This document shows, piece by piece, positions 33,882 through 35,743 of a DNA stretch of 64,000 nt. Both the position numbers and the translations under genes were made by a program. The DNA lies in contig NZ_CM001974.1 in assembly GCF_000406105.1 (NCBI RefSeq), positions 3,464,386 to 3,528,385 of the forward strand. The letters are read 5' to 3'. Numbering within the stretch: position 1 is the stretch's first letter; each line of letters starts with the position of its first letter. Source of the DNA: Dickeya chrysanthemi NCPPB 402. GTDB taxonomy: Bacteria > Pseudomonadota > Gammaproteobacteria > Enterobacterales > Enterobacteriaceae. The notes beneath the pieces are model-generated. The model was not told the origin of the DNA. It ran no database searches and saw nothing but the letters and a program-made list of their open reading frames with translations.

Positions 33882-35743
33882 ATGACCTTTGATATAGCGA
33901 AATACCCCACGCTGGCGCTGGCGGAAAACCCTGAGGAACTGCGCCTGCTGCCAAGGGAAAGCCTGCCTAAATTGTGCGATGAACTGCGACAATATCTGTT
34001 GGACAGCGTCAGCCGCTCAAGCGGGCATTTTGCCTCGGGTCTGGGTACGGTCGAGTTGACCGTAGCGTTGCATTACGTTTACAACACGCCTTTCGACCAC
34101 CTGGTGTGGGATGTCGGTCATCAGGCTTATCCGCATAAGATCCTGACCGGGCGACGTGATCGCATCGCTACCATCCGTCAAAAAGGCGGGCTGCACCCGT
34201 TTCCATGGCGTGGTGAAAGCGAATATGACGTCCTGAGCGTCGGCCATTCGTCGACGTCCATCAGCGCCGGTATCGGCATGGCCGTCGCCGCTGAACATGA
34301 AGGTATGGGACGGCGAACCGTCTGCGTGATTGGCGACGGCGCCATCACTGCCGGTATGGCGTTTGAGGCCATGAATCACGCCGGCGATATCAAACCGGAT
34401 ATGCTGGTCGTGCTGAACGACAACGAAATGTCGATTTCCGAGAATGTCGGCGCGCTGAACAACCATCTGGCGCAGTTGCTTTCCGGCAAGCTCTATTCCA
34501 CGTTGCGCGAGGGCGGTAAAAAGGTGTTATCCGGCCTGCCGCCTATCAAGGAACTGGTCAAACGTACCGAAGAACACCTGAAAGGCATGGTGGTGCCCGG
34601 TACGCTATTCGAAGAATTGGGCTTCAACTATATCGGCCCGGTGGATGGTCACGACGTGCAGTCGCTGGTGCAAACCCTGAAAAACATGCGCAGCCTGAAA
34701 GGCCCGCAGTTGCTGCATATCATGACCAAAAAGGTAAAGGCTATGCGCCGGCCGAACAGGACCCGATCAGCTGGCACGCCGTGCCGAAATTCGACCCGGC
34801 CAGCGGGACATTACCGAAAAGCAAAGAAGCGCTACCGACTTACTCCGCCATTTTCGGCGAGTGGTTGAGAGAAACCGCGGCGGCAGACCATCGGCTGATG
34901 GCCATTACCCCGGCGATGCGCGAAGGTTCCGGCATGGTCGCGTTTTCGCGTGAATATCCGCAGCAATACTTTGATGTCGCGATCGCCGAGCAACATGCGG
35001 TGACCTTTGCCGCCGGGCTGGCGATTGGCGGTTATCGCCCGGTGGTGGCGATTTACTCCACTTTCCTGCAACGCGCTTACGACCAGGTGATTCATGATGT
35101 CGCCATTCAAAACCTGCCGGTGTTGTTTGCTATCGACCGCGGTGGCATCGTCGGGGCCGACGGTCAAACACATCAGGGCGCGTTTGACCTCTCGTTCCTG
35201 CGCTGTATCCCTCACATGGTGATCATGACGCCCAGCGACGAAAACGAGTGCAGGTTGATGCTACATACCGGTTATCACTATCAACAAGGCCCCTGTGCAG
35301 TGCGTTACCCGCGCGGCAATGCGCTGGGCGTGGCGCTAACCCCGCTGGAAACGTTGCCTATCGGTAAAGGCGTCATCAAACGCCAAGGGGTGAAGATTGC
35401 TATTCTGAATTTCGGTACTCTGCTGCCGGAAGCTCAGCAGGCGGCCGACGCACTCAACGCCACACTGGCGGATATGCGATTCGTCAAACCGCTGGATGAA
35501 GCGCTTATTGCCTCACTGGCCGCCAGCCACGATGTGCTGGTGACGCTGGAAGAAAATGCCGTTATGGGTGGAGCTGGCAGCGGTGTGAACGAATACCTGA
35601 TGGCGAAGCGCCTAGCCGTTCCGGTGCTCAATATCGGCTTGCCGGACGCGTTTATTCCCCAAGGGTCCCAGGCGGAAATCCGCGCCGACCTGGCGCTGGA
35701 CGGCGCGGGTATTGAACGCCGCATCCGCGACTGGCTGGCCTGA
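33882..35743 (+). pseudogene. dxs: 1-deoxy-D-xylulose-5-phosphate synthase, frameshifted in this sequence
   Basis: Thiamine-diphosphate enzyme for the first step of the MEP isoprenoid pathway. The frame opened at 33882 matches Dxs to codon 284 (HIMTKK), then runs into unrelated residues and stops at 34868. The rest of Dxs continues in another frame from about 34733 to 35743. Restoring one G at 34733-34734 (AAA AAG GGT AAA GGC) rejoins both halves into 620 codons, the exact E. coli length. The TPP motif GDGAITAGMAFEAMN lies in the first part and the EQHAVTFAAGLA transketolase region in the second. As dxs is normally essential, a sequence error is the first suspicion. Confidence 0.93.

What the first reader, a model, noticed from the sequence alone, without database searches (positions are those of the whole stretch)
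34728..34735. Single-base frameshift in dxs, a normally essential gene
Dxs reads in frame to the conserved TKK, then shifts. Adding one G to the GG at 34733-34734 restores GKGYAPAEQDP and a 620-codon gene. Dxs is the only entry to the MEP pathway in enterobacteria, so real loss should be lethal without a second copy or suppressor. A sequencing or assembly error is the simplest cause. The site follows a Lys-Lys AAA AAG pair, where -1 slippage would also restore the exact protein.
Basis: partly seen in the sequence, partly recalled or inferred. Interest (0 to 1): 0.72.

Follow-up and report, generated by a model that had tools for sequence, protein, structure and literature searches.

The report
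Likely sequence error in dxs gene
A single-base slip splits an essential bacterial housekeeping gene in this draft genome, but the evidence points to a homopolymer-type sequencing error rather than to a bacterium that lives without the enzyme.

Summary
Confirmed: dxs in the window is split by a one-base shortfall at 34728-34735. The likeliest cause is a sequencing or assembly error. The assembly is a scaffolded draft with 14 gaps of exactly 100 N in 1.2 Mb. Two other conserved genes in the surrounding 400 kb (corC, ybbP), and one more from a two-way comparison, are also one base short. All four breaks touch an A or T run of at least 5, against 3% of positions. The four genes flagged in the two comparison genomes of the three-way survey have 0 of 4 breaks near such a run. 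Both halves are as constrained as in relatives. No second dxs, no HMG-CoA reductase and no known aceE or ribB suppressor residue was found; dxr and ispH are intact. The canonical A AAA AAG site and a notable downstream structure are missing. One of eight congeners (G004) has its own dxs frameshift elsewhere, in an assembly that also breaks another conserved gene. Platform and reads were not available, so a real deletion tolerated through slippage is not excluded (about 6%).

The parts
33882..34868 (+). First piece of dxs: 328-aa ORF; codons 1-284 read Dxs, then 44 off-frame residues
34728..34735 (+). Break point: A5 run followed by GG, one base short of the frame relative to intact relatives
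34781..35743 (+). Second piece of dxs: 320-aa ORF in the other frame, aligned to E. coli Dxs residues 301-620; no Shine-Dalgarno-like stretch close upstream of its GTG (read by eye)
32944..33855 (+). ispA-like gene upstream, open; name from E. coli gene order, no family search made
35829..36341 (-). Convergent downstream gene, pgpA-like (name recalled); E. coli has yajO after dxs

Best explanation
The break is an error of the draft sequence. One base was lost from the consensus at or beside the A5 run at 34728-34732, as happens when a flow-based platform such as 454 miscounts a run, and the living strain carries one intact dxs. Shown: the break, the draft state, three like-shaped breaks at A/T runs in other genes, and constraint on both halves. 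Inferred: that it is an error, and the kind of platform, since no call names the genome or shows its reads.
For: Fourteen gaps of exactly 100 N in 1.2 Mb. In the three-way survey of 400 kb, 3 of 225 assessable ORFs (251 kb) are clearly shifted in G000: dxs, corC, ybbP (names). The two-way survey adds one 504-aa gene. These four are each one base short beside an A/T run of 5-7; runs of 5 or more plus one base on each side make up 2.96% of positions. Of the four genes flagged in G006 and G003, 0 of 4 have a run of 5 near the indels. Nonsynonymous to synonymous codon differences, own against 7 relatives, are 0.04-0.08 in the first part and 0.15-0.30 in the second; the 21 pairs of relatives span 0.0-0.07 and 0.07-0.32. 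Private residue changes of the own copy: 1 and 2. No second dxs, no HMG-CoA reductase, dxr and ispH each in one frame, and suppressor residues wild type. G004: 2 of 40 assessable ORFs shifted, dxs among them. Papers: 454 sequencing of many Dickeya strains (PMC3837183, PMC3735067, whole texts); 454 assembly errors favour A/T runs (PMC3277595, passages).
Against: No reads and no second assembly of the strain were seen, and the platform is unknown; assembly sizes in the 454 papers do not match G000 exactly. The number of shifted genes in G000 (3 clear, 1 unclear) is only a little above those flagged in G006 and G003 (2 each). Replication slippage also prefers runs, so the signature alone does not separate error from mutation. 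Three further rows flagged in G000 that I dropped show bases gained at runs, bases lost, or mixed indels, not a single lost base.
Confidence: 0.88

Rival explanations
1. The deletion is real, and the strain lives on a fraction of full-length Dxs made by slippage of RNA polymerase or the ribosome at the A5G stretch.
For: A -1 slip on the last Lys codon would resume the Dxs frame (sequence). Laboratory drift of one gene showed bypass of indels at repeats as short as 4-5 bases (PMC3812077, passages). Constraint on the second half persists.
Against: The site is not the A AAA AAG heptamer. The 64 bases downstream fold no better than shuffles, z 0.34. 7 of 8 congeners need no recoding, and G004 is broken elsewhere. 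Like breaks at runs in corC, ybbP and another gene point to one general cause.
Confidence: 0.06
2. dxs is really lost in this isolate, perhaps in culture, and another enzyme or a suppressor supplies DXP.
For: E. coli dxs nulls are rescued by aceE or ribB point mutations (PMC3424233, passages). In a survey of 4,400 species, 181 appeared to lack only Dxs (PMC10663253, passages). A split transketolase-like pair is present.
Against: RibB G108 and D113 and AceE Q408, L633 and E636 are wild type. The pair scores higher as transketolase and lies far below the dxs cut-off. No close YajO relative: the best of 9 matches to a 234-residue piece of E. coli YajO is 41% identical. No sign of decay in either half.
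Confidence: 0.04
3. Dxs is made as two chains that assemble, like split transketolases.
For: The second ORF starts at the residue that aligns with E. coli Dxs 301, near the end of the first domain (border recalled, not tested). Split transketolase-like halves occur in the same genome.
Against: The GTG start has no Shine-Dalgarno-like stretch close by (read by eye). The first piece carries 44 off-frame residues. None of the other 147 genomes shows this arrangement over the cut-off.
Confidence: 0.01

Closest known systems
Homopolymer consensus errors of 454-type assemblies (PMC3277595, passages)
   Same: Single-base shortfall beside A or T runs, several genes in one draft, conserved genes hit
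   Different: Platform of this genome not known; reads not seen
Dxs, 1-deoxy-D-xylulose-5-phosphate synthase (TIGR00204; PDB 2o1s)
   Same: Both pieces pass the family cut-off; the second aligns over its whole length with E. coli Dxs
   Different: Not one open frame as written
dnaX-type programmed -1 frameshifting (PMC5009743, passages)
   Same: Lys codons AAA AAG, and a -1 shift would join the frames
   Different: No A AAA AAG heptamer, no notable structure, not conserved
Slippage bypass of indels in short repeats (PMC3812077, passages)
   Same: Indel beside a run of 5 A
   Different: No evidence here that the indel exists in the living strain

Membership tests
Dxs (TIGR00204) | score over the curated cut-off | tested here: met
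   476.4 and 495.5 bits for the two pieces against 465.95
Dxs (TIGR00204) | one uninterrupted frame | tested here: not met
   Two frames in the window
Homopolymer consensus error | one-base indel at or beside a run | tested here: met
   A5 run at 34728-34732
Homopolymer consensus error | further errors of the same shape in the assembly | tested here: met
   corC, ybbP and a two-way 504-aa gene; with dxs, 4 of 4 clear cases at A/T runs of 5-7
Homopolymer consensus error | reads disagree with the consensus | not testable with these tools
   No reads held
Programmed -1 frameshift (dnaX type) | A AAA AAG slippery heptamer | tested here: not met
   15 AAAAAAG in the window, none at the site
Programmed -1 frameshift (dnaX type) | stimulatory RNA structure downstream | tested here: not met
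   z 0.34; 128 of 200 shuffles fold at least as well
Programmed -1 frameshift (dnaX type) | conserved among relatives | tested here: not met
   7 of 8 congeners have one frame; G004 is broken elsewhere
Suppressed dxs null | aceE or ribB suppressor residue | tested here: not met
   Five published positions wild type; other suppressors not tested
Dxs-less species with an alternative route | second dxs or mevalonate route | tested here: not met
   No second dxs; for the mevalonate route only HMG-CoA reductase was tested

The most novel reading that the evidence does not exclude
The deletion is real, and a free-living enterobacterium sustains an essential enzyme solely by slippage at a short A5G stretch without a dedicated recoding signal.
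Probability: 0.06. Interest if true: 0.6.

Novelty: not a real feature. Interest (0 to 1): 0.1.

Why it matters
As an artefact it matters little beyond annotation: the gene may be called a pseudogene, and automated surveys of Dxs-less species could count it wrongly. If the deletion were real, it would show an essential enzyme supplied through low-level slippage.

Tried and rejected
Second dxs copy: rejected; the other matches are transketolase-type. Mevalonate route: HMG-CoA reductase not found. Known suppressors: residues wild type. YajO: no close relative (query a 234-residue piece). Programmed frameshifting: rejected on heptamer, structure and conservation. Old pseudogene: rejected, both halves as constrained as in relatives. 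Naming the strain: not achieved. By size the nearest entry in the two 454 papers is CSL RW192 (4,696,643 bases against 4,700,353), but the G+C of 1.2 Mb (53.9%) lies outside the D. oryzae and D. zeae ranges in PMC10319131 (53.3-53.7%, passages), so I do not claim it. Paper search for dxs, frameshift, pseudogene, Dickeya (at least 3 of 4 terms, 37 papers, 8 listed, listing only) showed no title about this break.

Faulty or superseded calls: searches (wrong locus offsets; script read the wrong record; first survey, found dxs only because corC and ybbP fell into other classes; replaced; wrong ORFs, replaced), first part (misaligned, replaced). Rows dropped: the first-part row of L014 (G004, off frame); the G000 gene at 3366504 (several indels, unclear); the G000 rows at 3214547 (indels of 2 and 1 gained, one near a run of 6), 3383571 (two single bases gained, near runs of 9 and 6) and 3496925 (mixed indels of 4, 5 and 1), as gene ends or probable antisense ORFs judged by eye (indels). 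One search also flagged 8 rows in G006: two are the mirror images of dxs and of the 504-aa gene; of the other six, 2 have one of their indels near a run of 5 and none near a longer run. The two-way survey therefore shows shifts in G006 too.

Full report
Observation. The window carries dxs between an ispA-like and a pgpA-like gene; xseB-ispA-dxs is also the order in E. coli. The gene is in two frames: ORF 33882-34868 holds codons 1-284 and ORF 34781-35743 the remainder. Both pieces pass the dxs family cut-off, and the second aligns with residues 301-620 of E. coli Dxs in 2o1s. The break lies at an A5 run and GG, 34728-34735. In the three-way survey no other gene of the window was flagged as shifted.

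Relatives. Of 8 congeners held, 7 have one frame, and one (G004) is split near codon 130 by its own one-base change. Of 80 loci (best of 597 candidates), 79 have the two halves in one frame. Of 148 genomes of the order, 142 pass the cut-off; apart from G000 and the partial G021 these 140 have one stretch covering at least 600 of 616 positions, one of them (G081) with a stop flagged inside. All 8 congeners spell the two lysine codons at the site differently, so the site is not a kept recoding signal, and the lost position cannot be fixed from the letters.

Assembly quality. G000 has 21 contigs, one of 4.67 Mb, and 1.2 Mb of it hold 14 gaps of exactly 100 N; one starts right after the window's last base. 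In 400 kb compared with G006 and G003, 3 of 225 assessable ORFs of G006 are clearly shifted in G000: dxs, corC and ybbP (names). Seen from G003, 4 of 208 are flagged, the fourth (3366504) being unclear and not counted. A two-way comparison over 1.2 Mb adds a 504-aa gene. The breaks in dxs, ybbP, corC and the 504-aa gene are each one base short beside an A/T run of 5, 5, 6 and 7; for the first three both references agree. Runs of 5 or more with one base either side make up 2.96% of positions, so four of four would have a chance of about 8 in 10 million if indels fell anywhere. The four genes flagged in G006 and G003 in the same survey have 0 of 4 breaks near such a run.

Results against this reading. 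The number of shifted genes in G000 is only a little above that in the two comparison genomes (2 flagged each). The two-way survey flags six more rows in G006 besides the mirror images of the G000 breaks, two of them with an indel near a run of 5, and three dropped rows in G000 show gained bases, lost bases or mixed indels. True slippage also favours runs.

G004 as a control. In 60 kb of G004, 2 of 40 assessable ORFs are shifted: dxs and a gene that looks like trigger factor (name recalled from its first letters). A broken dxs in a published sequence is therefore no proof of a broken dxs in a cell.

Does the cell need it? No second dxs was found; the other matches are a transketolase and a split transketolase-like pair. 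HMG-CoA reductase was not found, and dxr and ispH are present in one frame. In E. coli, dxs loss is lethal but suppressed by AceE Q408R, L633R, E636Q/G or RibB G108S, D113G (PMC3424233, passages). These positions are wild type in G000 (the paper's AceE numbers omit the first Met, judged from the residues). YajO, named as a rescuer when overexpressed (PMC10663253, passage), has no close relative; the best of nine matches is 41% identical.

Selection. Against G006 the first part differs at 86 synonymous and 4 nonsynonymous codons of 281, and the second at 110 and 17 of 320. Changes private to the own copy at residues unanimous in the others are 1 and 2; the relatives span 0-1 (G004's off-frame row left out) and 0-8. 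The second half has a higher ratio than the first, but this holds among relatives too: own pairs 0.15-0.30, 21 relative pairs 0.07-0.32 with median 0.19. The second half has not decayed, so the break is either very young or not there.

Slippage. A -1 slip would join the frames, but the site is C AAA AAG, not A AAA AAG, and the 64 bases downstream fold no better than shuffles. Bypass at short repeats has been seen in a laboratory drift (PMC3812077, passages), so this route is not excluded.

Verdict. Dickeya strains sequenced by 454 are known (PMC3837183, PMC3735067, whole texts), and 454 assemblies err at A/T runs (PMC3277595, passages).

Noticed in passing
L014 (G004:C1:3776416-3778246): A second congener assembly has dxs in two frames, broken near codon 130; in 60 kb of this genome a trigger-factor-like gene is shifted too.
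   Followed up: partly
G000:C21:3345211-3346094 and 3396981-3399448 (outside the window): corC and ybbP are each one base short beside an A/T run, the same shape as the dxs break.
   Followed up: yes
G000:C21:4121465-4123149 (L003, L005): Split transketolase-like pair (320 and 291 aa open frames); a similar pair is listed in G005 and G008, and a C-terminal-half match of the same size in G002.
   Followed up: partly
window 35743-35829: No yajO after dxs, unlike E. coli; the window's next gene is convergent.
   Followed up: partly
G000:C21:3528386: A gap of 100 N begins right after the last base of the window.
   Followed up: no
G006:C1:3176767-3178112: A gene in the comparison genome G006 differs from G000 by one base without any run nearby; which of the two is in the ancestral state was not tested.
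   Followed up: no
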